Assembly: GCA_036925085.1 (NCBI GenBank)
Contig: JAUPFP010000022.1
Span: 1,422,501-1,486,500 of the forward strand
Direction: 5' to 3'
From: Brachycybe producta
Lineage: Eukaryota; Arthropoda; Diplopoda; Playtdesmida; Andrognathidae
DNA length: 64,000 bases
Shown: positions 5,247 through 59,327 of the stretch, piece by piece
Layout of the letters: each line of letters begins with the position of its first letter
Numbering within the stretch: the stretch's first letter is position 1
Program-made: the position numbers and the translations under genes
The notes under the pieces: model-generated
Databases searched by the model: none
Seen by the model: the letters and a program-made list of their open reading frames with translations, nothing else
What the model was told of the DNA's origin: nothing

Positions 5247-7910
5247 ATGGGCGACAGAAATTGGAGCGATCGGACAATTGGAGGCTCACAGGAGGTAAAG
5301 TTTACATATTATGATACATTTTAGTGTCTTTTATGATTGTGCAATGCGATAAGATGCAAAAACGCGCCACAAATGCTGCTTCAAAACGTTAAAAAGGTCT
5401 TCTTAAATGAAATATTCAAAAGGGACCTTTCAAAGTGTTAAAAAGACCCAAAAATGAAGTTACAATATGCTTAAAATGCCCAAAAATGCTAAAAGCGGCC
5501 CCAAATATAGTATAAAAAAGCAAGTTAAGCTTCAAAGCGTTAAAATAAAAGCTCAAAGCGAAGCTTCAATTTGCGTAAAAAGCCCCAAAGTGCTAAAAAG
5601 GCCCCAAAGAATTAAACACAAAAACAAATTTAGCTTCAAAGTATTAAAATAAAAGCTCAAAATGAAGCTGTAATATGATTAAAAGCCCCCCAAAAGAGTT
5701 AAGAAATCTCAAGGTACACCTTAAAGCGTTAAAAAAAAGTTCAAAAGAAGCTTTCAAAGCGTTAAGAAAGCTCAAAAGACGCTTTAGTATTAAAAAAAAT
5801 GCCCAAAAGCGCTGAAAACGCAAAAAAAAAAAGAAGAGAAGACGAGAAAACTGACAGTTAATAATGTGTATGAATGTGTAAATCAGCCTTCGTTTGTTGG
5901 CGCCCTTCTTCCTAATTGTACTACTTCGGTCTCGGTCGTATTTACGAGAGGGGGTACGCGGACAAGTACGAAGCTTAAGCCGACAGCAACGCAGATAAAA
6001 CTCAGGTAATAAAGTAAATTTAGAGAAGAAAGAGAGATAATAATAATAAATATAGCATAAATAGGGGGCAAAAAATAAAAAAGCTCAATGTTTTAAATCA
6101 AGAAATGAGAAAAAACATATAAAAGGAAAGACAAGAAACAAGTTTTTCTTGTCTTTCCTTTCAATCCAAATTCCCAATTTTTTTTTTTTGTTATGTTCTT
6201 GTGTTTACTAACAGTTCTGTTTGCATTGTTCCCCCTTGAAAAAGACAAAAACCCATTCTTATAACAGGATAGATCGGTACGAGAACGTAGTTTGGATCGT
6301 GGAGAAGGACATAGAGGAGACGATCGAAGGCAACAACAGGGAAGAAGAGATGACGACGACAAACATCGTACTGCGAGGCAATTCAATAAAAAAAAGTTCT
6401 ATTTTAAATTTTAAGATATCTCTTAAAATAACGAAAAAGAACCTCATTTTTAGGCATTTGTATCATGGATTCGGCGACAGAAGAAGGTCCAGATCCAGAA
6501 GTCCTTCTAACAAGAGAGGAAGTATGAGTCGAGATTACAGAAGACGAGAAAGAGGAGGAGGAGGAGGAGGTGGTGGTGGTGGTGATCATTACAGAAGATC
6601 GAGAAGCCGTAGTCGCGAAAGGCGTCGCAACAGTGTCGAAAAAGATCGTCATCGTACGCGCAGATCAAACAGTCCAAGAGATAGACGTAATAGGTACTCA
6701 CCAAACGGTGTGTGTTTGATAAAACGATGGATCGTAATCGACTTGAAACTCGTTACAGGAAAAGTCGAAGTCGTAGTCGAGACCGTCCGAGATACAGAAA
6801 ACGACCTCAGTCTCACAGTCAGAGTCGTAGTCCCGATTACTGTCGTTCGAGACCTTTGGGAGGAACTCAAAAGACAACCAACAGTTCGGCCACTTCGGCT
6901 GCTCCTCCTAACCAAAACAACGTAGAAGAAGATTCAAAGACTAAAAGCGAAGATTTTAGTAACGAGAAACTGAGTAACTTACCGCTGAAGGATCCGATGC
7001 AATTGATACGAAGTGGACACATCGTAACGGCACAGATGGCCGTTCAACAAACGATGGCTGCGATGAATGCAAGAGCGCAACAGTTAACTGGAGTTCAACT
7101 TCCGAAGTATTACAATCCGGCTGCTGTAAACCCAATGAAGTATGCAGAACAGATGCAGAAACGGAAGCTTCTTTGGCAAAATAAGGAAAAGAAAGAGGTT
7201 GGTTTTTGAAAACATTAACTGAACAATTGATTTTTTCACTTCTTTAACAGATGTTTTAGAGAAAGCTGTTGAATAGAAATGGTGTTAAAGTGTAGACGAC
7301 CCTCGAACTCTGATTATTCTGTCTTTCGGGTGCAAAATAAAGAGAAACTTGAATGTGTTTTAGAAACTAGAAGGGTAGCTCAATCACTTAAGTTTATATT
7401 TTCAAGCTTTTTATGTTAGTTTGACATTTTTTTAATTTGTCTGTAATAAACTTAAGTGATTGAGCTACCCTTCTAGTTTCTAAAACACGTTCAAGTTTCT
7501 CTTTTTATTTATTTAACTTCTGAAAGACAGAATAATCAAGAGTTTGAAGGACGTTTACACTTTAAAACCCCACTTAATGTATTGTATTCTTAATTGTTAA
7601 GACGGTGGCGCCATCTACCAACCACTGGGAAACTACGACCTTCTCTCAGGATCAAGATGGAAAGATGGCAGCGAAATTCAAGAAGCTGATGGGCATTAAA
7701 GAAGAAGGCGTCGGTGGAACGTCCGATACTACGAAAGTGGTAGACTCAGATCCGAATGCACAGGACCACATTCGAAAGCAGGAGGAATTGTTTCGTACTC
7801 TCGACCAGCAGTACGAAGTGGCTCGTATTTCGACTCATACTCAGAGAGGAGTCGGACTCGGATTTTCCTCAAGTGCTCCCATACAGATACCACACATCTT
7901 TCCGAAATAA
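5247..7910 (+). CDS. RSRC2: RSRC2, arginine/serine-rich coiled-coil protein 2
   Basis: Proposed exons are 5247-5294, 6268-6377, 6454-6693, 6759-7197 and 7602-7910, about 381 residues. The nuclear RS-rich protein has an RS/glycine region (SRSRSRSPSNKRG, a Gly run, then RKSRSRSRDRPRY) followed by the conserved C-terminal block: HIVTAQMAVQQTMAAMNARA, YYNPAAVNPMKYAEQMQKRK, KFKKLMGIKEE, THTQRGVGLGFSS. That block is diagnostic of RSRC2, a splicing-associated protein. The last two exons are certain. The 6693/6759 junction (66-base intron) is well supported by phase and sites. Exons 1-2 are weaker: the exon 2 donor would be GC rather than GT, and exon 3 could instead start at 6481. The last intron contains a palindromic MITE. 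Confidence 0.88.
5340..5850. repeat. Degenerate short repeats in RSRC2 intron 1
   Basis: Motifs such as CAAAGCGTTAAAA, GCCCAAAA and GAAGCTTCAA recur every 30-60 bases, for example near 5385, 5430, 5530, 5590, 5725 and 5755. This is a decayed minisatellite in the first intron of the RSRC2 model. The short reading frame across it is low-complexity Lys-rich sequence and is not credible as protein. Confidence 0.6.
7276..7575. mobile_element. Palindromic MITE (CTAGAAGGGTAGCTCAATC family), RSRC2 intron
   Basis: This is the clearest full copy. The left arm runs from GTGTTAAAGTGTAGACG through CTCGAACTCTGATTATTCTG to CTAGAAGGGTAGCTCAATCA. The right arm is its reverse complement and ends near ACGTTTACACTTTAAAAC. 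Arms exceed 130 bases around a T-rich centre. Related full or partial copies lie near 8460-9150, 17610-17890, 18064-18360, 19870-20165, 20890-20930, 22340-22440, 24590-24830, 28010-28310, 37800-37930, 43780-44000, 45050-45430, 48380-48620, 52320-52590 and 54430-54660. Confidence 0.88.
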
Positions 7911-9306
7911 CCTTTAACTTTTTTTCCTCCGCCCATATTTCGTCTTCTGTTATTTGCTGTCATATTATTTCATTCACATCCTCCGATTAACAAACGTTTG
8001 TTTTTGTTTTGATTCCTTAATTGTTTGTAATTAATCTAAACGATACGAATAGAGAATAAAATGTATAAAAATGTAATCGAGCTTTTTCGACTTCCCCATT
8101 CAAGTTATCTTCAATTACCCAAGTATAAATATTGTATTTCTAATAAAAAAGCAAAAAAAAAATGTGTTTTGTTCGTTCGTTTGATGAAATAAAAAGTTGT
8201 TTTCTCCATCATATTTAATTTTGAAAGATTTTTACGTTTAAATTCAAGCAATATATAATTGGTACTTGAACTTTTGACCCCTCTGAGATAGGGGGGTTCC
8301 AATATGGAAAAATTTTGCCACTGAGATTTTTTTTCTTTATGGAACAATTTAAAATCAAAATAAGTAATCAGATGTTTTATTTTTTAAAATTCACTGAAAT
8401 TTTAGAATAAAACAGCTGATTACTTATTTTGATTTTAATAAAACTTCCGATGTTTTCTGAATAATGGATTTTGAAACTGATTATTTTGTAGTTTCACAAT
8501 AGCAACACTAAAGAGAAATTGAAAATGTATTATAAACTAGAACAGTAGCTGATTAACATACATGAAAATGCTTAACTACACTTCTAGTTTTTAAAATCCT
8601 TTTTAATTTCTTTTAATTTTGCTCTTATGAAAGACAGAATAATCAAAGAGTTTGAAAATCAGTTGTTCATAAAATCATTTTAAGTGTAAAGTTTTAAAAG
8701 TGTAAATGCAATTTGAACTCTGGTTATTCTGTATTTCAGGACAATTTAAAATGTTTTTGTTTTTTTAAAAAAAAAACTAGAAGGGTGACTCAATCACTTA
8801 ATGGTATTTGTTCTGCTAATATATTTTAAAATAAGCTTTTTGTGTCAGTTTGGAAATTACTCAAACTTCTAAGTTAAACTTAAACCATGTCGAAAGACAA
8901 AACTTTCTATAGTAAGTCTATGGAGTGTTTTTAAGTTTAACTTTAAGTTTTACTTTGGCTTAAGTAACATTTTAGAATGTGGCCCTGTAAACCTTTTATA
9001 GACAAATGTTTAAAAAATATCATCTGCTTTATACATTAAAAGTTTATTTTAAAAGATATCAATATGAAAATATCCTGATTTCTAGTTTCTAAACACTTTC
9101 AAGTTTCACTTTTGAAAAGTCGAATAATCAAGAGTTCGAGGAGCACCACATACCCTGTAAAACCAGCGATACGAAACATATCACGGTATCGCGCTATAAA
9201 TAATACTTTAAGAGGTACTTGTGCTTTGAATTTATAGTTCATTGCTTTCGTCACTAGAGGCGTTGAACGCAATTTCTAACATGAGCCCGTGACAAATGGG
9301 TGATAC
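7911..9306. other. Intergenic: RSRC2 3' region and decayed MITEs
   Basis: After the RSRC2 stop there is an AATAAA at 8055. A small palindrome lies near 8350-8445 (AATCAAAATAAGTAATCAG with its complement). Several overlapping, diverged copies of the CTAGAAGGGTAGCT-type MITE fill about 8460-9150. No gene is supported. Confidence 0.6.
8055..8060 (+). terminator. Candidate RSRC2 poly(A) signal
   Basis: AATAAA lies about 145 bases after the RSRC2 stop codon. Position and sequence only; the cleavage site is not known. Confidence 0.45.
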
Positions 9307-11536
9307 ATGTCACAGTATAAAGAGGGCCACGGTGCCCTTGAAGAAAAGGGCCTAAGGATGTTTACGATAGCTAACATTCAGGATGGAGACGTTCTGCCTC
9401 ACTCCTTAGTCCTGATAGAAGGCTACATTGAATCTGATTGCGAGAATGAAGTGACAGTTACGAACGACACTTTGGATCATAACGAGAACCGTATTACGAA
9501 GTGGCCCGTATCGAAAAACCGCTTCAAGGCCCTAGTACACCTGAAAAGAGGCAGCAATGTTTTAGCTCTCGAGTGTGGCACTGAATCGAGGCGTTTAACA
9601 CTTAGTTACGAACCTCAGAGAACGGATCACTTTGTACGGCTCCTTTATGTTGTATGCGAAGACGATCCGGAACGTGGGAGGTTTCAGGAGCCACCGGAAT
9701 CTAATCCGGCACGGTTTACTGTCGAGAGCGCGTTGAGAAGAATAGAGTTAGCGGCACGGTTGGTGCAGACTTTCACTGGCGAATGTCTCGTAAGACACGG
9801 TCTACCCAGACGAACATTCTGTTTACAGGAAAGTAGTCGTTCCGTAGTGTGCCGCCTCTTCACATTGCGTTCCGTATCAGTGGTCCAGGCGAGATCCATG
9901 TCCGAACTGGATTTATGGTGCTTGGTACGAGACGAATTGGCTCGCGATCCTGAAATGAATCGTGAAAAAGAGAAGTGCAAGTTTATTGCTTTTCTGTCTT
10001 TCACTCGTTACCATAATCCGTTGTCGATGGAACCGAAAAGCCATCGTGACAAACTGAAACTCACGGAAGGTCACGCTGCACTCGGAGGAGGTCGTTTGGC
10101 CCTCTTGGGTACGGGTTGTCTCCACACTTGGGCTGAAACGATTGCGGAAATCGTGCCTTGTTTTATGGACTGCACAAAAGTTGACACTCTCCATTTACTC
10201 GATGATAGCAGCTATAGGTTTTAGTATAAATTGAATCTCGAATCTTAAAATTTGCATTATTCTGTGTTTCAGGAGCAACAACTACGGAGCAATTGAAAAT
10301 GTGTTAGAAACTAGAAGAATAACTGAAGCACTTAATAGTATTTTTATGTTGATATCTTTCAAAATAAACTTTTTATAAACGAAACTAAAATATAATCCAC
10401 TTAAAGATGGGTAATTATTTTCAAATTGACATAAAAAGTTTTATTTTAAAAGATATATCAACATGAAAATATCAAGTGATTGAGCTACCCTTCTAGTTTC
10501 TAAAACATTTTCAAGTTTCTCATAATTTTGCTTTCCTGAAAGACAACAAGAGTTGGATTAGGGTTTTTTTTTTTGCCCAGCTTAACGAGCTCAAATAATA
10601 ACAGGGGTACATACTGGGGTTGTTATTCAACCACACTGGGAGCGATGTGTCACGAAATGGGACACACTTTCACACTGAAACACACCGATCGTGGTATCAT
10701 GAACCGAGGTTTCGATCAGATCCATCGAGTCTTTGTGCTGAAATCCAAGGGTGACGATCTACAAATGGAACACGAAGATCATGAACATCAGCACTTGGAA
10801 GACCATTTATCCTGTAACGTCGCCTCTTACGAGAATCCTTCCGGTCTGTTCCTCCTCAAAGAAAAACGACTCGTTCCAGCCAGAACCTTTGACGTATCCT
10901 TTCAAAGAGAATCCTTCTTGTCCAAGCTAAAAGTGAAGAAGGGACCATTGCAATCACCAGATGTTCTACAGAAAAACCGTGCCGTAACTCTCGAACATTG
11001 GAACGAAGCATTTTGGGACAGAGCCTCTGCCGTTTGGCTATCTTACCACAAGTAGATTAATCACAATCTAAACTCTTCGGTTAAATAGCTCACTAATCTT
11101 GTTATCTCCACACAGGTGGTTCAACACGGAGGATCCTCGTAACAGTGGACACGGACCACAATTACACGGGTAATAATGTTAACTATCGAAGAATGAGAAA
11201 TTTCTTTCAAAGTGTTATTTCACATCAAAAGGCTCCTAGAACCCTTTTCAATTCATACGTAATTACATCGTAATAAGGGTCGAAGTCCGTTCTCGTCATG
11301 GCCTTCGTATCGTCATTTTGGAAGACACAAATCATGTCTTAGAACATTGGGAATTTCTACAACCTGGTGCCAAACTCACATTCCGATTGCAACCATCCTC
11401 GTCTTCCTTCTTCACACTCGATGGTGGTGATTCGTCATCATTATCATCACCGACCTTAACAGTCAAGGCAATGGATTCATTCGGAAACATTCTCGAAGAG
11501 TCCATCTCGAAGGAAATCCTATTAGGACACCTCTAA
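9307..11536 (+). CDS. Putative zinc metallopeptidase, YIL108W-like family
   Basis: Exons 9307-10217, 10581-11051, 11116-11169 and 11278-11536 join in phase into about 564 residues. The catalytic signature HEMGHTFTLKH (H328, E329, H332, H338) has the metzincin spacing HExxHxxxxxH and is followed by a Met (GIMNRG) that could form a Met-turn. The usual Gly of HExxHxxGxxH is Thr here. The N-terminal block (MFTIANIQDGDVLPHSLVLI), GGGRLALLGTGCLHTWAETI and C-terminal WFNTEDPRNSGHGPQL match my memory of the eukaryotic 'putative peptidase' family of yeast YIL108W (Pfam Metallopep). Substrate unknown. No signal peptide or membrane segment is seen, so it is probably cytosolic. The start is the first in-frame ATG; the conserved Met at 9358 or an upstream exon is possible. 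Intron 1 is almost wholly a MITE. Confidence 0.85.
10236..10560. mobile_element. Palindromic MITE filling intron 1 of the metallopeptidase gene
   Basis: This copy of the CTAGAAGGGTAGCT family has its left arm ending TTAGAAACTAGAAGAATAAC and its right arm starting GATTGAGCTACCCTTCTAG. The 363-base intron (10218-10580) consists almost entirely of this element; only about 20 bases remain on each side. Confidence 0.82.
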
Positions 11537-11567
11537 TTAGTAAACCACATAATTCGAAATTTTTTAT

Positions 11568-11573
11568 AATAAA
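11568..11573 (+). terminator. Candidate poly(A) signal of the metallopeptidase gene
   Basis: AATAAA lies 32 bases after the stop codon, in a T-rich context typical of a 3' end. Confidence 0.5.
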
Positions 11574-12616
11574 TTTTCAGAAAATCGATTTGCATTCTAC
11601 TGAACTAAATTTCAGTTTTTCTTACAAATTTGTATCATTTATCTTCTAAAATAACTAAAAAAAAAAAATTCTTCTTTGAAATGAAGAGTTTTAATAATTT
11701 TTAGTAAAAATGAATTTGCTAGGAATTTTACTTTTAATTCTGTTTCTGAAGGTTCAAAGTGACCTTTAGCTACACACCATTTTACCTGTTGTACATCTTA
11801 TTTGGTGGACCTACGCCCTATAAAGGAGGACATTGCAGATTCCAAACATTCCAACATTTTATAATAAAAAAAATTCTGTTTTATCACAATATCGAATTAC
11901 AGTTTTTATACAGAATTAAAAGTTTAAGATGAGAATTAATAGTTTTGCAAACAATGAAAAATTTCATTCAAATCATTTTCAGAGAAAAATCTATATTTTT
12001 TTAGAAGAAACTTTTTATAGAAACTGAAAGTTTAATTTAAACTATGAGATAACCAAAATAAAAAAATAAGCATTTGATGAGAAGTTTTTTGAAAATTGTC
12101 ATTTTTTTTGCTTTTTTTTTTCCCCTTAAGCTATTTTTTTTCTCAAATTCTCATAAAAAGTTAATTTTAAAAAAAATATCATAATATCGTTTTAAAGTGG
12201 AAACCGTTTAACACGAAATGTAAGGGACCAGAATATTTTCTCATCTGAAATGAATTTCTTGTTTTTTTTTTTATATTATTCCAAAACCATACTTAAGTTC
12301 GCGTTATCCGATTTTTTTTTGGGGGGGGGGGGGGGAGGGTTATTCGTTTTCGTGTTAAATAATTATCATTGCAGGCCATTATTTACTAGTTTATATCTTT
12401 ATTCGTTTGTTTTCAAAACAAACTTTTAAATTAAAACATTTTAGATTTTAACTTCTATCACATGTTTAATTTAAAAGTTAATTTTTGAAAACATTTCATA
12501 ATAATATTTTGAAGTGGAAATCGTTTAACACGAAATGGAAGGAACCAGAATGTTTTTATGTTAAACGAAGCCACCTTAAACATCATTCAAAAGTTCCTTC
12601 TAAAAAAAAACTATAA

Positions 12617-12820
12617 AGCTTGCGGCACACTACATCGGAACGGTCGGAACGAATCGGAATTTTTTTGATAACAAGCATTTCAATGGAGCTTCCCGCATTC
12701 GAAACAACGTGGCGTTTCCTATCCGATTCTAGCTAGTGTGCGAGGCTCCATTGAAATTCTTGTTATAAAAAAAAATTCCGATTCATTCCGTTCCGATCCG
12801 ATGTAGTTTGTGACTTGCTT
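12617..12820. mobile_element. Palindromic MITE (AAGCTTGCGGCACACTACAT type)
   Basis: The left arm AAGCTTGCGGCACACTACAT, with CGGAACGAATCGGAATTTTT, is matched on the right by AAAAATTCCGATTCATTCCG and ATGTAGTTTGTGACTTGCTT. Inner arms also pair (GCATTTCAATGGAGC with GGCTCCATTGAAATTC). Confidence 0.8.
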
Positions 12821-13387
12821 AATAATACTTCCAACGAATCTTAAGTAAATTTACTCAAATTAACCATATCTCAATTAAAATTATTAATTAATAATATTTA
12901 GTTTATATTACAATAATAATTATAACAAAAAAAAAGAAGGGGAATAAACAACAAAACAAGATTCCCATTCATTTTTATAGAATAATAAAAACAGCTAAAA
13001 ATCTTGATAAACATATTAAGAGATCTGAATGTCACATCAAATTTGCATATCCACAAAGATAAAACATATGAAGAAAAACAAAAACGCCCAACTTTATATA
13101 ATATACATATATATTAAATTAGCTACAACACTAATTTTTTTTAATTAAAAGAGAGAATTGATTCGATGTTACGATGTTGAAAAAACCTGCACTTATATTA
13201 GATTTTGTAAGCCACAAAACACTTCTTTCGAGCCAATAATTGTTTTTTTTTATATAAATATGGCTCACAAAATCCATTAATATCATTAATTTATATCATT
13301 TTTTTTTAACAAATTGGAAAAGCAACTTTGAAATGACATTAAAAAAAAATACTGCTAATAATGAAATAATCAAGAAATGAGACCACG

Positions 13388-13918
13388 AAGGTCGGTTTAC
13401 ATTAGGCAACATAAATGTAGTACTGTGTTGTACCACATGTGTTGTGCAACACACAGGCATCTGTAGACAGCTTCAGAATTTCTTTGGCTCCGCCCTTTTA
13501 TGAGCGTCAGACCAAATATCAACCAATTAAAAATAAAAAAGGGCGGGACATGTGACAAACAGACCCAGTAACAAACCAATTAGAAATTGATGACGCTCAT
13601 GAAAGGGGCGGAGCCAAAGAAATTCTGAAGCTGTCTACAGATGCCTGTGTGCAACACATGTGTGGTTTACACTGTGATACACTTGTTACAGCAAGTTGGC
13701 GGCTGAATTTAATCTTGCCAGTGGTCATTATTCATTAATATGCACCCCTTTTTGCAATAATGATGGATCGTGGCTTCCCATTGGCTACAACATTTTCTCC
13801 AGCCACAAAAAGTTGAACAGAAGTTTCTACAACACATAAAACGCGGTTAGAGTGTGGTGGGGTTTTAGTGTACCACATTTTTATAACACCACTTTGTTGC
13901 CTACTGTAAACCCACCTT
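13388..13918. mobile_element. TIR element interrupted by a second MITE
   Basis: The outer ends are AAGGTCGGTTTACATTAGGC and its complement GCCTACTGTAAACCCACCTT. The interior contains TGTACCACAT-type subrepeats. A 196-base element of another family is inserted at 13453-13648 with a perfect 9-base duplication of host sequence, which dates the outer element as older. Confidence 0.82.
13453..13648. mobile_element. Mutator-like MITE, nested, 9-base target duplication
   Basis: Termini are ACAGGCATCTGTAGACAGCT and its complement ending CAGATGCCTGT. GTGCAACAC occurs immediately on both sides (13444-13452 and 13649-13657). Arms contain GGCTCCGCCC boxes. A sister copy is at 26195-26390. Confidence 0.88.
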
Positions 13919-14700
13919 AAGACACACTACTACAAAAATAAAATAACAAATTCGGAAACCCATCGAACGTCAAGCACATATTTCGAAGAGTGACACGACA
14001 CGAAGACGGTTACGATTTCAAGTGTCGTGATAGAAATAAATGCAAAAACAAACCCAGGGCGACAACGAATATATATCACGTAACCAAATGGCACTGTAAA
14101 CCCGACATGGACACAAAACACGCACGATAGTCACGAGAGAGTGAAATAGAAAGAAACTATATACTGTTGCATAAAGTTGACCAAAAAAAAAAATAAACTT
14201 CGATCGATAATAAATGCGACCGCGTGTGTGCGAGAATTAAGAGAAAAAAATGTGGACACAACGAAAGAAGATAAATATCTGAATGGCGAAAAACACGTTA
14301 AGAAGTAGTCGTTACGCTGCGCTCTTTATAATGCGTAAGGTGCAGTCTTGAGTGAAAGACTGAAAAATATATACATAAACTAAAGGTTCACGGCACGGAA
14401 ATTTTGGATTTCGAGAATTTAAACTCGATAACACCTGAAAATCAGCTCAAAAAGCCAAATGTTGTCAAAGCGAATTGCTCCTAGTCATACTGTATATGGT
14501 TGTCATTTAAAAGTCGAAATCGTTCTTTAAAAAAAAACGTTTTCTTAAGTCTTTACGAAAGAAACAAGATTAAAGCGACACAAACTCGAGAACGAAAAGA
14601 CAAAATTCTGAAGCACGTTATTATTTACAAGAAGAGAACCCCACAACGTACCGTTCATTCGTAGCACGAGAAAGATCCGTCTCCTGGAATTTTTTTTTTT

Positions 14701-35156: not shown

Positions 35157-35193
35157 TCCACCGTGTTTATCATTAATAACCACAGATAGGAAA

Positions 35194-49300: not shown

Positions 49301-51837
49301 TCCAGTTGCCCCTCGGCGAACGCCAGTTGCTGACGAACGACTTCCATCTGCAATGCGTCTCCGGTGCTCGATCTACGTAACTACGAACGAAACAACATTC
49401 AAACAACCGTTAAAACCCTCCGAGAATCGATGTCTACCTTGTCCTTATAGTGTTGAACTTTAACACTTGCGTTCTCGGACATCTTCAAAGCGGAAGATAA
49501 CTCGTTCTTCAACGTGAGGGTCATCAACTTGGCCTCTCGATATTTGCTTTCAAGTTCACGAAGAAACTCCTTCAAACTGTCGTTTTCCTGCCTAGTGAAT
49601 AAAAATATATGACAGAATGTGAGACAAAACCGCATCGTAGAAAAAACGATAAATTTTAAGTTCGAACTTGAGTTGATCGAGCTTCAGTTTTTCTGCATTC
49701 TTCCATTTCTCTTTGACTCCCTCCAGTAATTGCAAAGCATCTTTTTCCATCTTAAGTCGTTCTGCACGTTCTAACTCGATTAGACGTCTCAGACTCTGTT
49801 TGCCAATGAAAATTAATTGTGAAAACAAGAGACAATTTCGACATGAAACAAGCCGTTTAACGTACAGCTGCTTCTCCTTTTGCCGTCATCAGATCCTTGC
49901 AGAGTCTCTCGCACTCTCTCTCAGCGAGCAACTTTGTCTTTTCCTGCTCTTTAACCTGTAGAGTTGCCTTCGCCAACTCCGCACGACTTCTGCAGTCTTG
50001 TTTCTCGTAACATTCGATTCGCTTTCGCAGCTCTTTGATCTCTTCCTTCTTGGCCTGAAGTTGGCTCTCGAGGTTAATTACCGACTTCTGAGACGGAGAA
50101 CGCAGAATAGAGCTTTAAAAAAAAACTGTTAGTAAGAACCGATGCTAAACGATCTGTCTTTTATTCAAAAACCATCAAATACCAATCTGTTGATATTTCG
50201 GCATATTTTGTATGCGTGAATCCGATGAACGGAAGATTCTTTCCCGAGAATACTCCAGATTTAGAAACACTTGGTATTTCAACTTTAGGAGCGATGATCT
50301 CGTACTCTTCGAAGTTGGATGTGTCGTCTTGGCCAATTACGATTGGAACGAAAGGCGGAACAGCTTCATTACAGGAGAACAAAAAAAAATTACGTCAAAA
50401 ATTCTAAAAAAAATATAATTAATTAATTTAAAGCGCCGTTCGACGACGTCAAAACTAACAATCTCTTATTCCTTCCCAATTGATAGTCTCAAAAAAACTA
50501 TGTCTGCATATCTGCTCATAATCGAATCTACGAATGGTTTCGGAAAGAAGACCAGCGATAAGTTCCTTCGCCATATCAGACACTTCGAAACCAGAATCGT
50601 ATTTCAGTGTTTTCTGTAAAAATTAAAAACGGAAGAGAGCTGATCAAAACGAAAACCCATTAAGATGATCGGCACCGATAGAAACGAATAATGAAGGTTA
50701 CATTATGATTCATGATGTTGCTGTAAGTCACTAGAACCTTTTCATCGCTGAACGGAGTCTTGCCGCAAAGCATTTCGTAAGCGACAATTCCGAGAGACCA
50801 CCAATCACACGATCGTCCGTACGATCCCTTCTTTCCTTCGATCGAAGCCAAGACTTCGGGAGCTATGTAGTCGGGCGTTCCGACTGGCATCTTACTAGAA
50901 ACCGTGTCATACTTCGACAGTTTTGCGGCCGAACCAAAATCTGCCAGTTTGACGTGTCCGGTACGATCAATCAGAATGTTATCTGGCTTAATGTCTCTGA
51001 AAACGATAAAAAGTCAGCCAAAACGGTTACTACGGCTTCTGAATTTGTCGCGTCGTTGCTCACCTGTGGACGTAACCCATTCCATGAAGAGCGTGTATAC
51101 CGAGAGCGATCTCGGCCAAGTAGAATCGCGCCATATCTTCAGAAAATACGTTATCATAACGATCCAAAAGTGACAAGAGATCACCTCCAGGATGAAATTC
51201 CATAACGAAATAAAGATTTGCCGTATCCTGAAATGCGTATTGAAGTTGCGTAATCCAAGGACTGTTTGCTTTCGCCATTATGTCTCTCTCTTCGTCGTAG
51301 AACGCGACCTAAGGCGACAAAAAAACGAGTTACGATAAAGCTGTTTTTGCAGCTCGACGTTTCGTGTTTTAAGTTACGTTCTGTTGCGAAAGTGTGTCCG
51401 TTTTACGTAAAACTTTCATTGCGTAAACGTTTCCCGTCTGTTTCTCTCGAACAACCTGAACGTCACCGAAATGACCTCTCCCAATCACTTTCTTGACTTC
51501 AAAGTCACCGACGTTTACTCTCATCTTCTTTAATGTCGTCATTACTGTACGAACTGAAAATAAATAAGTTTATTTTGTAGGTCAGTATCATCTGATAAGA
51601 TTCGAACAATAAATTGATACATTTCTCTACGAAAACCGCAACGTTCTTGTCTTTTTTTATGGATTCCTGTTGTGTTTCTTCATAGAGGACAAAAAGCGCG
51701 TCCAGAAGAGCTTCTTTTGTAAGAAATTGTTGTTGATTAGGAAGCATTGTTGATGATTTACCGACAAACAGCTGATTTAAACGAACAGATCGAGCTGAAA
51801 TCGATTCCGACGTCAAAGGGATTTCATTTGCCGCCAT
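40335..51837 (-). CDS. CIT: Citron Rho-interacting kinase (CIT / sticky)
   Basis: Exons in transcript order: 51621-51837, 51378-51553, 51064-51308, 50702-50996, 50460-50613, 50183-50363, 49866-50112, 49668-49795, 49438-49591, 49132-49380, 48082-48315, 47701-48015, 47400-47627, 47123-47176, 46981-47052, 46795-46911, 45702-46385, 45509-45644, 44562-44649, 44342-44490, 44064-44256, 43137-43382, 42967-43069, 42758-42838, 42516-42663, 42214-42449, 41989-42097, 41783-41914, 41639-41719, 41516-41577, 41255-41406, 40335-40476. In phase; about 1935 residues (human about 2027). AGC kinase ~95-360 with [32 protein letters not shown] and APEVL, so probably active. Coiled coil ~430-1250; C1 ~1345-1393 with all Cys/His ligands; PH ~1425-1550; citron homology domain ~1555-1885. 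Family role: midbody organisation and abscission in cytokinesis, downstream of Rho. Triple CCAAT boxes lie upstream. Least certain sites: donors of exons 1, 18 and 30. Confidence 0.97.
43780..44010. mobile_element. Palindromic MITE fragment in CIT intron 43383-44063
   Basis: AGTACTTTCATGTTGTTCTCTTTC and TTTTTATAGAC on the left pair with AAAGATATCAACATGAAAGT on the right, followed by AGCTACCATTCTAGTTTCTA. It belongs to the CTAGAAGGGTAGCT family; further copies lie in CIT introns at 45050-45430 and 48380-48620. Confidence 0.7.
44706..44950. mobile_element. TIR element with TTTCTCAATCTGTGGCCCAA ends, CIT intron
   Basis: The left end TTTCTCAATCTGTGGCCCAA (44717) and right end TTGGGCCACAGATTGAGAAA (to about 44943) are perfect complements. 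Inner arms GGTTAGAGGCTAGATCG and AGTTCTAGCCTCTAAC also pair. A second copy lies at 25480-25655. Confidence 0.83.
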
Positions 51838-52082
51838 ATTTTTCAATTTCGCGATTCAACAAGCAAAACAAAAATAACTTTTAAAAAACCTTTTTTTTAA
51901 AACGTTAAGTCAATAGATAGACAGTCATAAATATGTAATATAACGTTATCCATTCAAATGAAGACTGCTTTTGACATTTCTAAATTATAAAACCGAAAAA
52001 TCTGACAAAATTCAGAACAAAAAACATCAAAGACGCCGTTTATGTCAGTAAACACAATGAACAAATTTCAAATAAAACAACC

Positions 52083-52168
52083 GTTTGAATATTCCGCTCT
52101 CTGATTGGTCAAACAGTAGATTCCGTTCTTCTGATTGGTCAAAAAGTAGATTCCTTTCTTTTGATTGG
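52083..52168 (-). promoter_or_regulatory. Three CCAAT boxes and a CHR-like site upstream of CIT
   Basis: GATTGG (CCAAT on the gene strand) occurs at 52103-52108, 52133-52138 and 52163-52168, exactly 30 bases apart, inside a repeated 30-base unit TCTGATTGGTCAAA-AGTAGATTCC. TTTGAA, a CHR-like hexamer, lies 15 bases nearer the gene at 52083-52088. Clustered CCAAT boxes with CHR are the known NF-Y/DREAM arrangement of G2/M genes. The distance to the CIT start codon is about 250-330 bases. Confidence 0.5.
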
Positions 52169-52669
52169 ATAAATAATCTAATATGACAAACCTATTTCAT
52201 GACGTCATGTAAATAGTATATGGTAACTAGCCGCCGCTGAAAAAAAAATTAATGACTAATAAGTGAAAATCTACGGAAGCGCGGAAGGATCAAAATATCT
52301 TAAATTAAAAAGTTGTTGAGTGTATAAAGTGAATGTGAACTTTAAAATTAAAAGTTTGTTAGAAATTATAGTAATTGAATTTGCTAAAAGTATTTTAATT
52401 ACGATATCTTTCAAAATAAATTTTTTATCGCAGTTTGAAAATGATACAATTGTTATTAACTTTCAGTGAAAATAGTTTTTAAATTATCATAAAAGTTTAT
52501 TTTTAGATATGCAAAATCATAAAAAATACTTTAAGCACACTCAACTATTATTCCAGTTTCTAAAAAACTTTAAATTTTTCTGATGAGTTGCTTTTTAAAA
52601 AAGTTTACACAAATTACGTAATTCTTTACATGGACTGTTTTAAAGAATCAACCCTCAGTGCTATGGCAA

Positions 52670-52711
52670 TGACGTCACGTTTATTTATATAAATTTATAC
52701 ACGTGACGTCA
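52670..52711. promoter_or_regulatory. Perfect inverted CRE repeat around a TATA-like core
   Basis: TGACGTCACGT at 52670-52680 and its exact complement ACGTGACGTCA at 52701-52711 flank a 20-base AT-only spacer containing TATATAAA. An E-box CACGTG lies at 52700. The site is about 290 bases upstream of TXNDC17 and 830 upstream of CIT, so either gene could use it; function is not shown. Confidence 0.4.
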
Positions 52712-53000
52712 TAGTGATTTCAACAGAATATGATTAATAAGGCAAAAAAATTATACCTTTCATAATAAAGAAAAGGTTGTTTAGAGGATAGAATTCTCTC
52801 CACTTAGCACGAGTTCTTTTTAATTTTAGCCTCCAACCAGTCTTTCTATTGAAACTGCATATTTTTTTTGCTGTCGGTTCTTTAAAGATAAAGCTGTTGA
52901 GGGCTTAACAGGTTTCCGTATCAGATTCCAAAGTTCAGACGACGTGAAAACTTAAAAACCGCCTGTTTTCTATCAATTTTCTTGCATTTTTCAATCGAAA

Positions 53001-53592
53001 ATGATTCAGAAATTGCATGCAAAAGGTTTCGACGAGTGCATTAAACTAATATCGAGCCAAGCGAAACCAGGAATCACTTTGTTTCTATTATTTTCTGGCT
53101 CAAAAGACGCTAATGGTCAAAGCTGGTGTCCAGATTGTGTCAAAGGCACATATTACATTCTAGCCATAAATGTCACGCGTAATGTATAAACCTTAATTAT
53201 GGTTCACATTTATTTCTCCTAGCTGAACCAGTTGTTGAAAAAGCTCTCGAATCCGCACCCGAAGATGCAGTTTTCATTGAGGTCGAAGTTGGAGAACGAT
53301 CCTAGTAATAAAATATCTGAATTGAGACCACAAAAAAGTGAGATAAAAAGTTAAAAAAGTAGCGTTTTTCTTTTAACAGTTGGAAAGATCAAAACAATCC
53401 ATTCCGTACCGATTCTCGATTTAATCTTAAGTGCGTACCGACGTTGATCAAATACGGAACTGTACGTAAACCGACGTAATGACTTTCGTACCGACTGAAT
53501 CGCTTACGTTCTTTTCGTTTCAGCCGCAACGTCTTGAAGAAGAACAGCTTTCTGACCTGGATACCGTTAAGATGTTGTTCGAAGACTCTTAA
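53001..53592 (+). CDS. TXNDC17: Thioredoxin domain-containing protein 17 (TRP14)
   Basis: Exons 53001-53145, 53223-53304, 53380-53461 and 53524-53592 give about 125 residues (human 123). A single thioredoxin fold with the diagnostic active site WCPDC (W42, C43, C46) within SGSKDANGQSWCPDCVK, then EPVVEKALESAP, VGERSYWKDQNNPFR and the cis-Pro segment CVPTLIKYGT. TRP14 is a cytosolic disulfide reductase served by thioredoxin reductase and reduces cystine and small protein targets. The exon 1 donor that preserves CVK-AEPVV is GC (53146), not GT; the alternative GT within TTGTGTC would delete the second active-site Cys. Other junctions are GT-AG. Divergent from CIT; convergent with ACADS. Confidence 0.93.
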
Positions 53593-53618
53593 AACTAATT
53601 TCTCAAATGTTAAACAAA

Positions 53619-53624
53619 TTTATT
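53619..53624 (-). terminator. Candidate ACADS poly(A) signal inside the TXNDC17 3' end
   Basis: TTTATT on the plus strand reads AATAAA for ACADS, 83 bases past its stop. It lies upstream of the TXNDC17 signal at 53660, implying overlapping transcripts. Confidence 0.45.
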
Positions 53625-53659
53625 TCTGTATTACCTTCGTTATAATTCCATTTTGTATT

Positions 53660-53665
53660 AATAAA
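53660..53665 (+). terminator. Candidate TXNDC17 poly(A) signal
   Basis: AATAAA lies 68 bases after the TXNDC17 stop codon and 42 bases before the ACADS stop codon on the opposite strand. Confidence 0.55.
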
Positions 53666-53706
53666 GATTAATAGTTAAAAATCATATTTTTGTTTTAGTT
53701 CTAAAC

Positions 53707-56105
53707 CTAATTTAGGTTATATTCTTTAATAAGATTGTTCGCAATTACGAGCCGTTGGATTTCGTTCGTTCCCTCGTAGATTTCGGTAATTCGAGCGTCG
53801 CGATAATATCTTTCGGCCGGCATATCGCTCACGTAACCCATTCCACCCAGTATCTGTATAGCCTGGTTAAACATTTAAAATGCAAAATAGTACAGACAAT
53901 TATAAAAGATTATTGGGTTTGAAGCTTACTTGATGTGCAGCAAATGTTGCGGCCTCCGAAGCGACCAATTTAGCCATCGCAGCTTCCTTAATAAATTACA
54001 TATTCGAAGCAAATTACAGAAGTTATAATTGAAGAAAGAAATATCAAAAATACTTTTGTAAAGGGTTTATGTGCGTCTTTGAGCAAAGCTGCTTTCCAAG
54101 TGAGAAGCCGAGCAGATTCCAACCTCGTTTCCATATCAGCCAACTTCATCTGTGCATAAAAACATATTCAGTGTCAACGTTTCTGACGTTTTAGTTGTGA
54201 AAGAAACATATTTCAAACACCTGAATTGTTTGCATTTTCAAAATAGGTGATCCAAAAGCTATCCTTTTAGCAGCATAGTCAATTGCACAGTCGATGGAAG
54301 CCTTAAAAACACATTTTTGAAAAAATATTGTTCATAACAAACCTGAATAACAGCGAAGAACACTTTTGAGAGAATTTCAGGCTTTCTTTAAACAAAAAAT
54401 GCGTTTTAGAGGCAACGTATGAAAGTATAGCAAGATTTATTTGAAACTAGAAGAGTAAACAAAGGCGCATAAATCATTTTCATCAAGATAACCATTTTTA
54501 TTTTCATAAAATGACTTTTTTAAAGCCGCCCTAAAAAGTGTATTTTCAAAGTCTAGTGTCAAATAAATATTGTGTTTCTTCGTTATTTTTGTGTTGAAAA
54601 ACGAAAATTAAATTAAATTATTTCGTCTTTACAATTTTTCTTTACTCTTCTAGTTTAAAATTGCTTCAGAACAGCGTTTTCCTTGTAGGTTTACAAAATG
54701 GCCAATACAAACGAAACGATTTCCCTTTTAAGAAAAAAAAAAGAAGAGAACAACCTTTGCAATGCCAAGACCCTGAGAAGCGATTCCGATACGTCCTCCA
54801 TCAAGAGTAGACTACATTTAAAAACACACACAAACGCAATTTAATAAAAAAAGCCTGTTGAAACAATTAAAAATCACTGAAGACCATTGCTATTTTGAAA
54901 CCGAATCCCGGTTCGCCAAGAAGATTCTCTTTTGGAATACGACAGTCTTCAAAGATCACGTTGGACGTCGACGACGCTCTTATTCCCAACTTGTCTTCCT
55001 TTTTACCAAGCGACAAACCGGGAGAATCTCTCAAAACGATAAAAGCACTGATACCCTTAAAAAAAATACAAATAAACCGATATATCATAATATTTTATCA
55101 CATTAAAATTATTTGTTTAACCACCTTGTGTTTCTTTTGCTTGTCAGTTGTCGCAAACACGACAAATCCTCCAGCCTCGTGAGCATTCGTAATCCAAGCT
55201 TTTGTTCCATTCAACACCCACTCGTTACCCACCAATTTAGCCGTTGTAGAGGCCGCTCCAGCATCGCTTCCGTTTCCAGGTTCGCTTAGAGCAAACGATC
55301 CAATTATGCTTCCGTCCGTGAACGGCCTTAGATGTTTTTCCTTCTGCTCTTTCGTTCCATACTTCGAAATGGGCCAAAGGTAAAGAGACTACAAAAGAAC
55401 GATAGTTAATTAGATTAAAGAAAACAGACTCTAGTTGCACATACATTATGTGCAGACATGATGGTCCCAGTTGCAGCACAACCTCTACTTATTTCCTCCA
55501 TAGCGACGCTGTAAGCAAGATTGTCCAAACCGGGTCCTCCTTCGGACTCGGGTAAAGCAATCGCCATAAGACCCATTTCACCCATTTTCTTCACCTGAAA
55601 CAGAAAAAATGCAATTGAAAATAATTGTGTCTATTTGTATTTCGCTAAAACGCAGAAATTTGCAGAAAAATAAAATAAATTTATGTAGACATATGCAATT
55701 AATTTGCAGACAACTAAAATAAACTACATGAATCTGCAAAAAAACTGCGATTTAGTGATTCGATTCCTTTTCTATGCACTTGTTCTGCTGGAAATCGATG
55801 GTTTCGATCGTTTTCAGCTGCCACGGGCTTTAGTTCCTTCTCGACGAAATCTCTGCACGATTTACGTAACATTTCATGTTCCTCTGGTAACTGACCCAAA
55901 GACGAGATCGTCCTAAGTCCAAACCCTTTGAGAAAATTCACTTCATGATTATGCCTAAATAATTCATCTAAAATACGATCAAAGAAAGCAAATTGCATCA
56001 AAAATTAACATAAAATTAAAAAAAAAATAAACAAAAAACTGAATTACTAAGCGTACAACATCCACGGCGAACTAGAAACATCATAGCCGGTTTTGTCATT
56101 GCCAT
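53707..56105 (-). CDS. ACADS: Short-chain acyl-CoA dehydrogenase, mitochondrial
   Basis: Ten exons in transcript order: 56057-56105, 55780-55925, 55445-55594, 55125-55388, 54885-55055, 54755-54811, 54221-54301, 54054-54149, 53930-53986, 53707-53862. All join in phase to about 408 residues (human 412). A basic, hydrophobic N-terminus without acidic residues ([15 protein letters not shown]) suits a mitochondrial presequence. Family signatures: [30 protein letters not shown] (flavin/substrate loop), [42 protein letters not shown], and [17 protein letters not shown] with the catalytic-base Glu of YEGT present. It catalyses the first, FAD-dependent step of beta-oxidation on C4-C6 acyl-CoA and passes electrons to ETF. 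Short-chain rather than another ACAD type is judged from overall match to ACADS. An element of the common MITE family sits in intron 54302-54754. Confidence 0.97.
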
Positions 56106-57098
56106 TTTCTAACAAAAAAAACTTCGGAACTAGAAATTCCAAACTAGGAAAATAAGTAAAACAAGTAATCGGCAATGAAACAGCTGTGATACACATAACT
56201 ACAATCTAACCCAGATGTTATCGATATTTAAACTAGAAAAACCAATATAATTGGTTCAAATTACAGTCAGATTCGTGTATTCTTATACAAAGGAAAATAC
56301 ATTTGTTGTTATTGGCTAAATTTTATTTGCAGCCGTAAATAACAATACAATAGAGAAATAATTTCAACAGTGATTGGCTTTTTAAATCTTCACGCTAGTA
56401 TAGAGAAATTTCATTCGAAGCTTATTGGTTGTTCATAATTTGCGGCCATTACAAATCAATTTAAGAAGGAAAATATCTCAAATATAATTGGCCTGATTTT
56501 TATTTTTTTTTTGTCGCGATTTTAGTCGATTTACAAAAAGTATCGATAAATATTTTGCATCGATTTAGATCGAATGTTTAGTTCAACTACAACCAAGATA
56601 AACGACATAGAAGAAAATCAAGTACGAGATTCACTAAGATTCATAACATTGAGAATGTAAGGCAAGCCGTATTACTTTTCATCCGCATTTTAATTTATAC
56701 CCAGAATATAACTGAATTATTGAAATCCAATAAAACGCGAATAAAAAGTAAAACGCCTTGCCATACTGTACGAGATTCACCTTTCTGTATCGTGCCCCTT
56801 GATTTGCGTCTTCCAGGAGGAACGACATGGGAGAGTTAAATCTCGTATGATGTGGCAAGCTTTTTTTATTTTTTAATCCTCGTTTTACTGGATTAAAAGA
56901 TTGTAATTTTACTCCTGGGCATCTAATGAACCGTGGATAAAAAGTCGAATGGCTTTCCATGTATGTGTTCTGCTGTGAATCTTTGTGAATCTCGTATGTG
57001 ATTTTCTTCGATGTCGGCCCCCTTGGCATCTCCTCCTCGTGTTTCCGTTTTGCTATTTGTTTTACTCTTTCAGGTGTTTCTTTTGCGAATTTACAGAC
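56106..57098. other. Bidirectional promoter region of ACADS and CCDC86
   Basis: A 993-base divergent spacer. Four ATTGG (inverted CCAAT) motifs lie at about 56311, 56373, 56424 and 56487. The CCDC86-proximal half is taken up by a TIR element (56603-57016). No coding exon seen. Confidence 0.55.
56603..57016. mobile_element. TIR element with CGACATAGAAGAAAATC ends
   Basis: The left end CGACATAGAAGAAAATCAAG with TACGAGATTCACTAAGATTC faces the right end GAATCTTTGTGAATCTCGTA with GATTTTCTTCGATGTCG. Partial relatives occur near 33110-33175 and 62215-62315. It lies 82 bases upstream of the CCDC86 start codon. Confidence 0.8.
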
Positions 57099-57948
57099 AT
57101 GACTGAAACAGAAAATAATGAAACAACAAAAGCGACAAAAAACATACCACTGGGTAGACCTAAATCTGGAAGAGTTTGGAAAAATAGAACTCGAAAGCGG
57201 TTAAATATGAAGCCTTAAACTCTGTGTTCCATATCGTTGAAACTCATGAACGTTACCTTTTTTTTTTTTTTTGACAGGTTTTCATCAATGAAACAAGACA
57301 CACCATTCAACACGTCCTGGGAGGATAAAATGAAGCTGAAAAAAGAACTGAAATTGGTTAAGGACCGAGAAAACGAGATGAAAACAGCCAGAAAAGAATT
57401 TCTAGAAGTTCGTCCATTGAAATTACAGTGGAAACCACTTAACACGAAATGGAAGAGACTGGATTATTTTTCTAGAGGGGGGGAATTCTTTCAATTAGCA
57501 GCTGCTTAGTCTCTTTTGCGCCTTCGATGCAACCTATATAACGACTCTCTATAGCCTTAGTTTGGAAGCTAGCAGATTCTAATTGAAAGAATGAATATTT
57601 TTCGTGTTAGAAGGGACCGAACCGTAAATATATTTCATGTTATCCGTTTTCGTGCTAAATAGTTTTCATTGTATTTGAATTATCTCGTGTGTTTTTGTTT
57701 GTTTACGTTAATTTATTTCAATGTCTTATTCACAAAAAAAAGGCTAAGAGGAAACGTCAAGAGGAGAATCAACGGAGAAGAGCTGAAAATTCAAAGAAAG
57801 CTGAAATTGTTCAAGTTGTAAGTTGGAGACAAAGTCAAAAGTTACCTTTTCGCAGTAATAAAGAATTTCTATTGTTTTTCAGATCAAGAACACGGCAAAG
57901 ATGCGTCGTATGAATAAAAAACAGCTAAAGAATATAGAAAAGCGTTAA
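57099..57948 (+). CDS. CCDC86: CCDC86 / Cgr1-family rRNA-processing protein
   Basis: Exons 57099-57199, 57278-57407, 57743-57817 and 57883-57948 give about 123 residues. The protein is almost wholly the Cgr1 domain: GRPKSGRVWKNRTRKRFSSM, then SWEDKMKLKKELKLVKDREN, KRQEENQRRRAENSKKAEIV and the basic tail MRRMNKKQLKNIEKR. Cgr1/CCDC86 proteins are nucleolar and take part in 60S pre-ribosome assembly (established for yeast Cgr1). Human CCDC86 has a long N-terminal extension that is absent here, so this resembles the short fungal form. The third intron (57408-57742) holds a TIR element at 57492-57592. AATAAA follows the stop at once (57952). Confidence 0.93.
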
Positions 57949-58827
57949 AACAATAAAGAAAACAAAAACCTTTTAAGTGGTTTATGAGTCACTTTTCTTA
58001 CTTTTATAATTCAAGTAAAAATCAAAATCAATCAATGATAATTTTAAAAGTTTGTTATAAATTAGAACAGTAGACAAATTTACTGAAAAATATTTTTAAG
58101 ATATTTTTTTTAAAAAATTAAAACTATGTATGGTAAATTTAAAGTAAAATATGACATAACTGTTTAAAACTAGTTTCTGTCGTTAAGAAAAACTGGAAAC
58201 TAGTTTAGAAACTAGAGGGATAGCTTAATCACTTAAGAGCATTTTCATGTGTGTGATATCATTTAAAATAAGCTTTTTATGTTATTTTGAAAACGTCCTT
58301 GCCTATAAAAAGTTTATTATAAAAGATACCCAACATGAAAATACTATAAAATGATTCAGCTGCTGTTCTAGTTTCTAATACACTTTCAATTTATTTTTAG
58401 TATTGCTCTTCTCAAAGGCAGAATAATCAGAATTATAAAATCAACTGTTCATGAAGCATTTAACAAGAGAGGAGGCGGTAGAAACGAGATATTGCTTCGC
58501 ATGAATTATGTATATTTATGCAAATTATTTTTGTTTGCGTTTTCTATCAATAGATGGTGTTACAATCGCTCTTGGTCGTTCTCAAGGTCACCGCTAATGG
58601 CGAGGTTTTTTTTTTTTCCTCCTCCTCCTCCTCCCTCCTCATTCTGTTTTTTTATGATGACGTCAATGATATGAGAGGCCCACAACAAGTTTATTTTTAC
58701 GTCGTTGCTGATGGCGAACAAGGTTTGACTAGAAAGGAGAAAGAAAAAAAAGGGTTTTTTTCGTGTGGAAATGTTACGCGACAACCTACAAATTAACTGT
58801 TACGATTCATTTATTTGACAAATTCTG
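57949..58827. other. Spacer between CCDC86 and Mondo
   Basis: AATAAA at 57952 ends CCDC86. A palindromic MITE of the CTAGAAGGGTAGCT family occupies about 58040-58440 (left AACTAGAGGGATAGCTTAATCAC, right ATGATTCAGCTGCTGTTCTAG). A CT-rich tract lies at about 58600-58640 and one TAGATGGTGT motif at 58551. The Mondo promoter and 5' UTR must lie here; they cannot be delimited. Confidence 0.55.
57952..57957 (+). terminator. Candidate CCDC86 poly(A) signal
   Basis: AATAAA starts four bases after the CCDC86 stop codon; the 3' UTR would be very short. Confidence 0.5.
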
Positions 58828-59327
58828 ATGTTGGGAAGCGTAAGACCGCGTCTATGTGCATTTAATATGACTCAGGGTGATGAAAACGGTGGTGGTAACG
58901 ATGCGACTTTACTAGTGTCGTCGTCTGATCTTTTGGATTATAACGAGGCTCAGCGTCGACAACAAGGTCCTCTTCCAAGAATGCGTCGAATGAGCGCCTC
59001 AATGATGGACGATGAATGTAGTTCATCATCTTGTAATCGTGAAACGATACACAGTGGTCATTTTATGGTGAGCGACATTGACGACACTGAGCCTCAAGAC
59101 GATGATGAAGACGACGACGTTGTTTCTGTTCCCGTTTCTGACGGTGGAGATGATCGTAACGAAGGGAGGAAACAGTTGTTGCCAAATAGTAGATCGGGAT
59201 ATGATTTCGAAGGAACTGCCATCAAAGAGACAGCTAATACTTATAATTTTGGACCCAGAAGTAGTAAATCTGTGTCTATTGACGCAACACTCACAAAACT
59301 CTTTCGTTGCATGACATTAGCTTATAG
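58828..59327 (+). CDS. MLXIP: Mondo (MLXIP/MLXIPL, ChREBP) N-terminal exon, partial
   Basis: A single exon of about 166 residues ends TTATAG at a GT donor (59328, phase 2). IHSGHFMVSD (~74-83) matches Mondo conserved region 1, and FGPRSSKSVSIDATLTKLFRCMTLAY (split here as FGPRSSKSV and SIDATLTKLFRCMTLAY, ~141-166) matches region 2, which holds the CRM1 nuclear export signal. Mondo proteins are bHLH-ZIP factors that pair with Mlx and sense glucose-6-phosphate; these regions belong to their low-glucose inhibitory module. The acidic linker (DDDEDDD, ~91-97) is typical. The next expected exon (region 3, SPKWKNFKG-like) was not found before 64000, so the intron exceeds 4.6 kb. A second in-frame ATG at 58867 is an alternative start. 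Whether the bHLH part exists cannot be seen. Confidence 0.85.

What the first reader, a model, noticed from the sequence alone, without database searches (positions are those of the whole stretch)
5247..59327. Conserved linkage block matching human 12q24 and its paralogous regions
RSRC2, PITPNM, CIT, ACADS and Mondo lie together here. From memory, human RSRC2, PITPNM2, CIT, ACADS and MLXIP are all at 12q24.23-q24.31. CCDC86 and PITPNM1 map to 11q12-13, and TXNDC17 and PITPNM3 to 17p13. Eight of nine genes thus fit a few paralogous human regions, as expected if the window keeps part of a pre-duplication chromosome segment in about 54 kb.
Basis: partly seen in the sequence, partly recalled or inferred. 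Interest (0 to 1): 0.75.

Follow-up and report, generated by a model that had tools for sequence, protein, structure and literature searches.

The report
Ancient animal gene neighbourhood, still linked
Nine ordinary genes packed into 54 kb of an unidentified animal genome are relatives of genes that mostly still sit close together on human chromosome 12, or on sister regions made by ancient vertebrate genome doublings, so the stretch looks like a surviving piece of an old animal chromosome.

Summary
By symbol these regions share paralogues such as BCL7A/B/C, ORAI1/3, SETD1A/B. CCDC86 (11q12.2) fits loosely; I recall no human orthologue of the peptidase. Five of eight families within 60 genes by chance: 3 of 30,000,000 draws. 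Shared descent from a pre-duplication linkage group is likely. Whether the tightness exceeds ordinary linkage-group conservation is open: P 0.00025 to 0.53 by assumed group size. Species unknown; no other invertebrate genome was searchable. A good example of a known phenomenon.

The parts
5247..7910 (+). RSRC2 orthologue, 5 modelled exons, 371 aa (one intron GC-AG)
   Evidence: model; Pfam SMAP E 6.7e-15; RS-rich N-terminus; no PDB relative at E 1
9358..11536 (+). Metallopeptidase of Pfam PF12044, 4 modelled exons, 547 aa, HEMGH motif
   Evidence: Pfam Metallopep E 1.7e-82
14701..29754 (-). PITPNM (membrane-associated PI transfer protein), 15 modelled exons; start at 29754, stop near 14701
   Evidence: Pfam IP_trans 3e-112, DDHD, PITM1-3, LNS2_PITM1-3; PDB PITPNM1 E 3.6e-105
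35194..38999 (+). MVP (major vault protein), 11 modelled exons, 832 aa; not named in the finding
   Evidence: Pfam vault repeats + shoulder; PDB MVP up to 1127 bits
41101..51837 (-). CIT (citron kinase), about 23 exons: kinase, coiled coil, C1, PH, CNH (weak); the last 16-bp exon and a 1-base intron of the model are artefacts
   Evidence: Pfam, no PBD hit at E 0.01; 371 bits vs a recalled human CIT fragment against 310 for MRCK alpha
53001..53592 (+). TXNDC17, 4 exons; the first donor and the junction residue are uncertain (GT at 53178, or perhaps a GC donor near 53144)
   Evidence: Pfam TXD17-like_Trx 2e-45; PDB TXNDC17 E 8.6e-43, both on a hand-joined sequence
53707..55998 (-). ACADS, 8 modelled exons, 397 aa; 114 bp between its stop and that of TXNDC17
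   Evidence: Pfam; 563.6 bits vs 1jqi short-chain enzyme, 269.6 vs 2jif short/branched-chain enzyme
57099..57948 (+). CCDC86 (Cgr1-like), exons 57099-57199, 57278-57407, 57743-57817, 57883-57948
   Evidence: one of several joins that stay open; CCDC86 in PDB 8fl0, E 3.1e-25 with a hand-joined C-terminus
58828..59331 (+). Mondo (MLXIP/MLXIPL orthologue), first exon only; the true exon end is probably just before the in-frame stop
   Evidence: 62 bits vs a recalled human MLXIP fragment; no Pfam hit; no later exon recognised to 64000
7329..58410 (.). About 240-bp foldback repeat family scattered through introns and gaps of the block (reference copy 10283-10534)
   Evidence: copies in RSRC2, metallopeptidase, PITPNM and CIT introns and between CCDC86 and Mondo

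Best explanation
The block is a segment of an ancestral animal linkage group whose genes have stayed linked in this lineage. In vertebrates the same group was copied by two genome doublings into regions now at human 12q24, 11q13, 16p11.2 and 7q11/17p13, and each gene survived in one or more copies: CIT, ACADS, MLXIP, RSRC2 and PITPNM2 at 12q24; MVP at 16p11.2; PITPNM1 at 11q13; MLXIPL, PITPNM3 and TXNDC17 on the 7q11/17p13 copy. No product of the block as such is implied: linkage persists because intra-chromosomal shuffling is slow and exchange between chromosomes is rare. Shown: the genes, their order and strands here, the human and turkey co-location, and shared paralogue symbols between the regions. 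Inferred: shared descent, the pre-duplication state, and slow mixing as the cause. The band names 11q13, 7q11 and human 17p13 for TXNDC17 are recalled.
For: Gene identities. Five families in one human interval of 122 printed genes, 90 protein-coding and 60 from CIT to PITPNM2 by my count; salmon chr24 keeps mlxip, rsrc2 and pitpnm2 in 350 kb. MVP in a 16p11.2 list that also holds BCL7C, ORAI3, SETD1A and COX6A2, paralogues by symbol of 12q24 genes; a second chromosome 16 list agrees for MVP, BCL7C, ORAI3, SETD1A. The chromosome 11 list holds PITPNM1, CDK2AP2, CABP2/4, and CORO1B and TBC1D10C against 16p11.2's CORO1A and TBC1D10B. The turkey chr21 list holds MLXIPL, BCL7B, HIP1, STX1A, PITPNM3 and TXNDC17. 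Random placement: 3 of 30,000,000 draws. One repeat family runs through the block, against a chimeric assembly. Precedent: linkage groups with scrambled order, ten of 17 in four vertebrate copies (PMC7269912, passages).
Against: CCDC86 (11q12.2) is several Mb from the chromosome 11 list (its exact coordinate is recalled). The metallopeptidase has no human place to test. Mondo is known from one exon. The regions were grouped after the fact from four gene lists by symbol, with no control for symbol sharing and no trees. The turkey paper's main text names none of CIT, ACADS, CCDC86, MVP, ORAI or CORO1. No second invertebrate genome could be searched, and the species is unknown.
Confidence: 0.85

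Rival explanations
1. Sub-chromosomal conservation: the genes stayed close, not merely on one chromosome, perhaps because shared or interleaved regulatory sequence penalises breaks.
For: Five families within 60 human protein-coding genes; given one linkage group of 2400, 1200 or 800 descendant human genes this is P 0.00025, 0.0042 or 0.018. The five keep human order up to one block swap (rotation; 10 of 120 orders; 3 shared adjacencies, reached by 18 of 120).
Against: With 400 or 250 descendant genes P is 0.17 or 0.53. The order result is not significant. Relative orientations differ from those I recall in human. No non-coding element was tested.
Confidence: 0.3
2. Coincidence plus selective memory: unrelated neighbours whose human cousins happen to lie near 12q24.
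For: The finding was picked from many windows, and the regions were joined after the fact.
Against: 3 of 30,000,000 random draws reach five of eight within 60 genes (a run of 300,000 gave 1); even 2,000 windows tried would leave about 2e-4. Most human positions are now from printed lists.
Confidence: 0.03
3. Assembly artefact or contamination joining unrelated pieces, or vertebrate DNA.
For: Repeat arrays lie near both ends of the window.
Against: The same foldback repeat lies in introns and gaps across 7.3-58.4 kb; 34 of 65 modelled introns above 30 bp are under 100 bp; single compact PITPNM and Mondo are unlike vertebrates (general knowledge).
Confidence: 0.03
4. A co-transcribed or functionally coupled cluster (operon-like).
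For: Short gaps: 114 bp between the TXNDC17 and ACADS stops, about 0.9-1.5 kb between several other coding regions.
Against: Strands alternate (+ + - + - + - + +), so at most neighbouring pairs could be co-transcribed (RSRC2 with the peptidase, CCDC86 with Mondo); the functions look unrelated.
Confidence: 0.02

Closest known systems
Ancestral chordate/bilaterian linkage groups (CLGs, ALGs) of Simakov et al. 2020 (PMC7269912; abstract and passages seen)
   Same: Genes linked in an invertebrate genome map to a small set of paralogous vertebrate regions; order is scrambled.
   Different: There linkage is at whole-chromosome scale; here nine genes lie in 54 kb. Which CLG this is was not found in the passages seen.
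2R paralogon 12q24 / 11q13 / 16p11.2 / 7q11-17p13
   Same: The window's gene families are members or neighbours of its paralogue sets (PITPNM1/2/3, MLXIP/MLXIPL; BCL7A/B/C, ORAI1/3, SETD1A/B as markers).
   Different: The window holds one copy of each family, as before duplication.
Metazoan microsynteny blocks / genomic regulatory blocks (recalled, no paper read)
   Same: Few genes kept near each other over very long times.
   Different: Those keep order, orientation or regulatory elements; none of that is shown here.

Membership tests
Pre-2R segment of a vertebrate paralogon | Families map to several vertebrate regions that share paralogues with each other | tested here: met
   Four printed gene lists share 1 to 4 families per comparison by symbol stem (B3GNT discounted), plus MLXIP/MLXIPL and HIP1R/HIP1 by eye. 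Symbols only: no trees, no control
Pre-2R segment of a vertebrate paralogon | Single copy of each family in the segment | tested here: met
   One PITPNM and one Mondo in the window; copy number elsewhere in the genome not testable
Pre-2R segment of a vertebrate paralogon | All placeable families fall in the set | tested here: inconclusive
   7 of 8 fit; CCDC86 at 11q12.2 only loosely; the peptidase is not placeable (recalled)
Bilaterian/chordate linkage group | Orthologues on one chromosome in amphioxus, scallop and other slow-evolving animals | not testable with these tools
   No such genomes reachable; the Simakov passages seen give no gene-level map
Microsynteny block under constraint | Conserved gene order | tested here: inconclusive
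   Five genes are a rotation of human order, 10 of 120; 3 adjacencies, 18 of 120
Microsynteny block under constraint | Proximity beyond chromosome-level linkage | tested here: inconclusive
   P 0.00025 to 0.53 depending on assumed linkage-group size
Operon-like cluster | Same strand, short gaps | tested here: not met
   Alternating strands

The most novel reading that the evidence does not exclude
The block is a sub-chromosomal neighbourhood that predates the bilaterian or even the metazoan radiation and has resisted internal shuffling in both this lineage and vertebrates (RSRC2-PITPNM and CIT-ACADS-Mondo as two order-preserving halves), implying a constraint on breaking it that acts below the level of the chromosome.
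Probability: 0.25. Interest if true: 0.65.

Novelty: new member of a known kind. Interest (0 to 1): 0.42.

Why it matters
It is a compact case in which a 54-kb stretch of one animal predicts the membership of a vertebrate paralogon: MVP, TXNDC17 and RSRC2, single genes in human, would belong with the PITPNM and Mondo duplicates. It gives a ready nine-gene probe for asking whether linkage conservation is only chromosomal or also local. In print: three full-text searches that name these genes with synteny or paralogon words (1, 6 and 12 papers, all listed) showed no paper on this linkage by title or abstract. Wider paralogon and linkage-group searches were seen only in part: 20 of 319, 20 of 35 and 15 of 25 papers. 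Supplements and most subscription papers were out of reach.

Tried and rejected
Rfam at gathering scores and tRNA scan: 0 matches. Species from repeat contamination: one exact 23-base pattern from the foldback repeat, 0 hits in genome contigs and in viral contigs. Extra genes: Pfam on 10 open frames (4 in PITPNM introns, 3 between PITPNM and MVP, 2 right of Mondo, 1 between ACADS and CCDC86) gave nothing at a curated cut-off, best E 0.0097; the left flank and the gaps at 11.5-14.7 and 39-41 kb were not put to Pfam, and the gap frames pooled were only looked at. The gene finder without forced boundaries joined some genes across gaps but gave no credible tenth gene. CIT C-terminus against PDB was weak: mrck-1 E 1.4e-6. 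Operon reading rejected on strand pattern. A recalled DOI for Lamb's 2021 paralogon paper is not held. Two opened papers held nothing useful, nor did a second look in the turkey paper. Searches were for gene positions. A first random-draw run gave 1 of 300,000; the larger run with another seed gave 3 of 30,000,000. The B3GNT1/B3GNT4 stem match is discounted (name only, recalled).
Full report
What is in the window. The 64-kb window is animal-type nuclear DNA: spliced genes, no own genome held, no tRNA or Rfam match. Stop-to-stop frames gave anchors for a small semi-supervised gene finder. Nine genes came out, in order: RSRC2 + 5247-7910; PF12044 metallopeptidase + 9358-11536; PITPNM - 14701-29754; MVP + 35194-38999; CIT - 41101-51837; TXNDC17 + 53001-53592; ACADS - 53707-55998; CCDC86 + 57099-57948 (corrected); Mondo + 58828-59331, first exon only. 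The models have small faults: one 1-base intron and one 16-base last exon in CIT, and an uncertain donor in TXNDC17. Of 65 modelled introns above 30 bp, 34 are under 100 bp.

Pfam gives SMAP (RSRC2), Metallopep, five MVP families, TXD17-like thioredoxin, acyl-CoA dehydrogenase N/M/C, protein kinase + C1 + PH with CNH below its cut-off and no PBD hit, and IP_trans + DDHD + PITM1-3 + LNS2_PITM1-3. Cgr1 for CCDC86 was below cut-off with a faulty model; with the exon chain joined by hand, CCDC86 in the PDB matches at E 3e-25. ACADS scores 564 bits against a short-chain acyl-CoA dehydrogenase (1jqi) and 270 against the short/branched-chain one (2jif), the next mitochondrial paralogue listed; bacterial enzymes reach 380. 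Mondo has no Pfam match and rests on similarity to a recalled MLXIP fragment, 62 BLAST bits in a two-sequence comparison; a motif scan recognised no later exon between 59.3 and 64 kb. RSRC2 found no PDB relative.

Human positions, from print rather than memory. A case report of a 6.6-Mb deletion at 12q24.23-q24.31 lists 122 genes in order (PMC11867633, passages): CIT, ACADS, a slot printed 'MLIP' after BCL7A (MLXIP), a slot printed 'RSRG2' after ZCCHC8 (RSRC2), and PITPNM2. By my count 90 of the 122 are protein-coding and 60 lie from CIT to PITPNM2. CCDC86 is given as 11q12.2 (PMC3052188, passage) and PITPNM3 as 17p13.2 (PMC6360383, passage). MVP lies in a 16p11.2 list, hg19 28.85-31.71 Mb (PMC10137620, passage). 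PITPNM1 lies in a chromosome 11 list, 65.48-68.85 Mb, 11q13 as I recall (PMC9352006, passage). In turkey one 2.2-Mb interval of chromosome 21 lists MLXIPL, BCL7B, HIP1, STX1A, PITPNM3, KIAA0753, MED31 and TXNDC17 (PMC8470100, passage). Salmon chromosome 24 lists mlxip, rsrc2 and pitpnm2 in 350 kb (PMC7896726, passage). That TXNDC17 is at human 17p13 and MLXIPL at 7q11 is recalled.

The regions look paralogous to each other. By symbol stem the lists share BCL7A/BCL7C, ORAI1/ORAI3, SETD1B/SETD1A and COX6A1/COX6A2 (12q24 with 16p11.2); PITPNM2/1, CDK2AP1/2 and CABP1/2/4 (12q24 with chromosome 11); CORO1A/B and TBC1D10B/C (16p11.2 with chromosome 11); BCL7A/B and PITPNM2/3 (12q24 with turkey 21), plus MLXIP/MLXIPL and HIP1R/HIP1 by eye; BCL7C/B and STX1B/A (16p11.2 with turkey 21); PITPNM1/3 (chromosome 11 with turkey 21). 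This is by name only; no trees and no control for name sharing were run. Of eight families that I place in human, seven fit; CCDC86 fits only at arm level; I recall no human orthologue of the metallopeptidase and could not test it.

Chance. Dropping eight families (11 human copies) at random among 20,000 genes, five or more fell within 60 consecutive genes in 3 of 30,000,000 draws; a smaller earlier run gave 1 of 300,000 and an analytic estimate 8e-8. The window was chosen for its oddity, but even a few thousand windows leave this small. The harder null is that all eight already belong to one ancestral linkage group. Then the probability is 0.00025, 0.0042, 0.018, 0.17 or 0.53 for 2400, 1200, 800, 400 or 250 descendant human genes. 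I do not know the right number, so proximity beyond chromosome linkage is not established. The five 12q24 genes here run RSRC2, PITPNM, CIT, ACADS, Mondo; human runs CIT, ACADS, MLXIP, RSRC2, PITPNM2: one block swap, a rotation that 10 of 120 orders would give (reflections counted), with 3 shared adjacencies reached by 18 of 120. Suggestive only.

Not an artefact. A foldback repeat of about 240 bp (reference 10283-10534) recurs from 7.3 to 58.4 kb, in introns of RSRC2, the peptidase, PITPNM and CIT and between CCDC86 and Mondo, so the block reads as one genome. Strands alternate, so it is no operon.

Reading. Simakov et al. describe 17 chordate linkage groups, gene order largely scrambled inside them, ten of the 17 in four vertebrate copies and the rest in three (PMC7269912, abstract and passages). 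The window looks like a piece of one such group before duplication. Which group it is, and whether other invertebrates agree, could not be tested. Three searches naming these genes listed no paper on this linkage; wider ones were seen in part. I rate it a well-supported new example of a known phenomenon, with an open and testable question about local constraint.

Noticed in passing
35194-38999: A complete major vault protein gene that the finding did not name; it matters because its human place, 16p11.2, fits the same paralogon.
   Followed up: yes
7329-58410: Family of about 240-bp near-palindromic (foldback, MITE-like) repeats in introns and gaps. One 23-base stretch of it, exact in the copies at 7454 and 10474, was not found in two contig collections.
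   Followed up: partly
1498-3370: AT-rich arrays near the left edge: a 177-bp unit in 3.7 copies and a 21-bp unit in 29 copies, the latter open on both strands.
   Followed up: no
62976-63550: 188-bp tandem repeat, 2.9 copies, near the right edge.
   Followed up: no
28791-29528: Nested inverted repeats, arms 80-105 nt at 87-95% complementarity, in the intron between the first two modelled PITPNM exons.
   Followed up: no
23162-23620: 114-bp unit in four copies (95% matches) inside a PITPNM intron.
   Followed up: no
53592-53707: TXNDC17 and ACADS converge with 114 bp between their stop codons.
   Followed up: no
9358-11536: A PF12044 metallopeptidase gene, a family I recall as missing from vertebrates (not tested).
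   Followed up: no
6378-6453 and near 53144: A GC-AG intron in the RSRC2 model and perhaps one in TXNDC17.
   Followed up: partly
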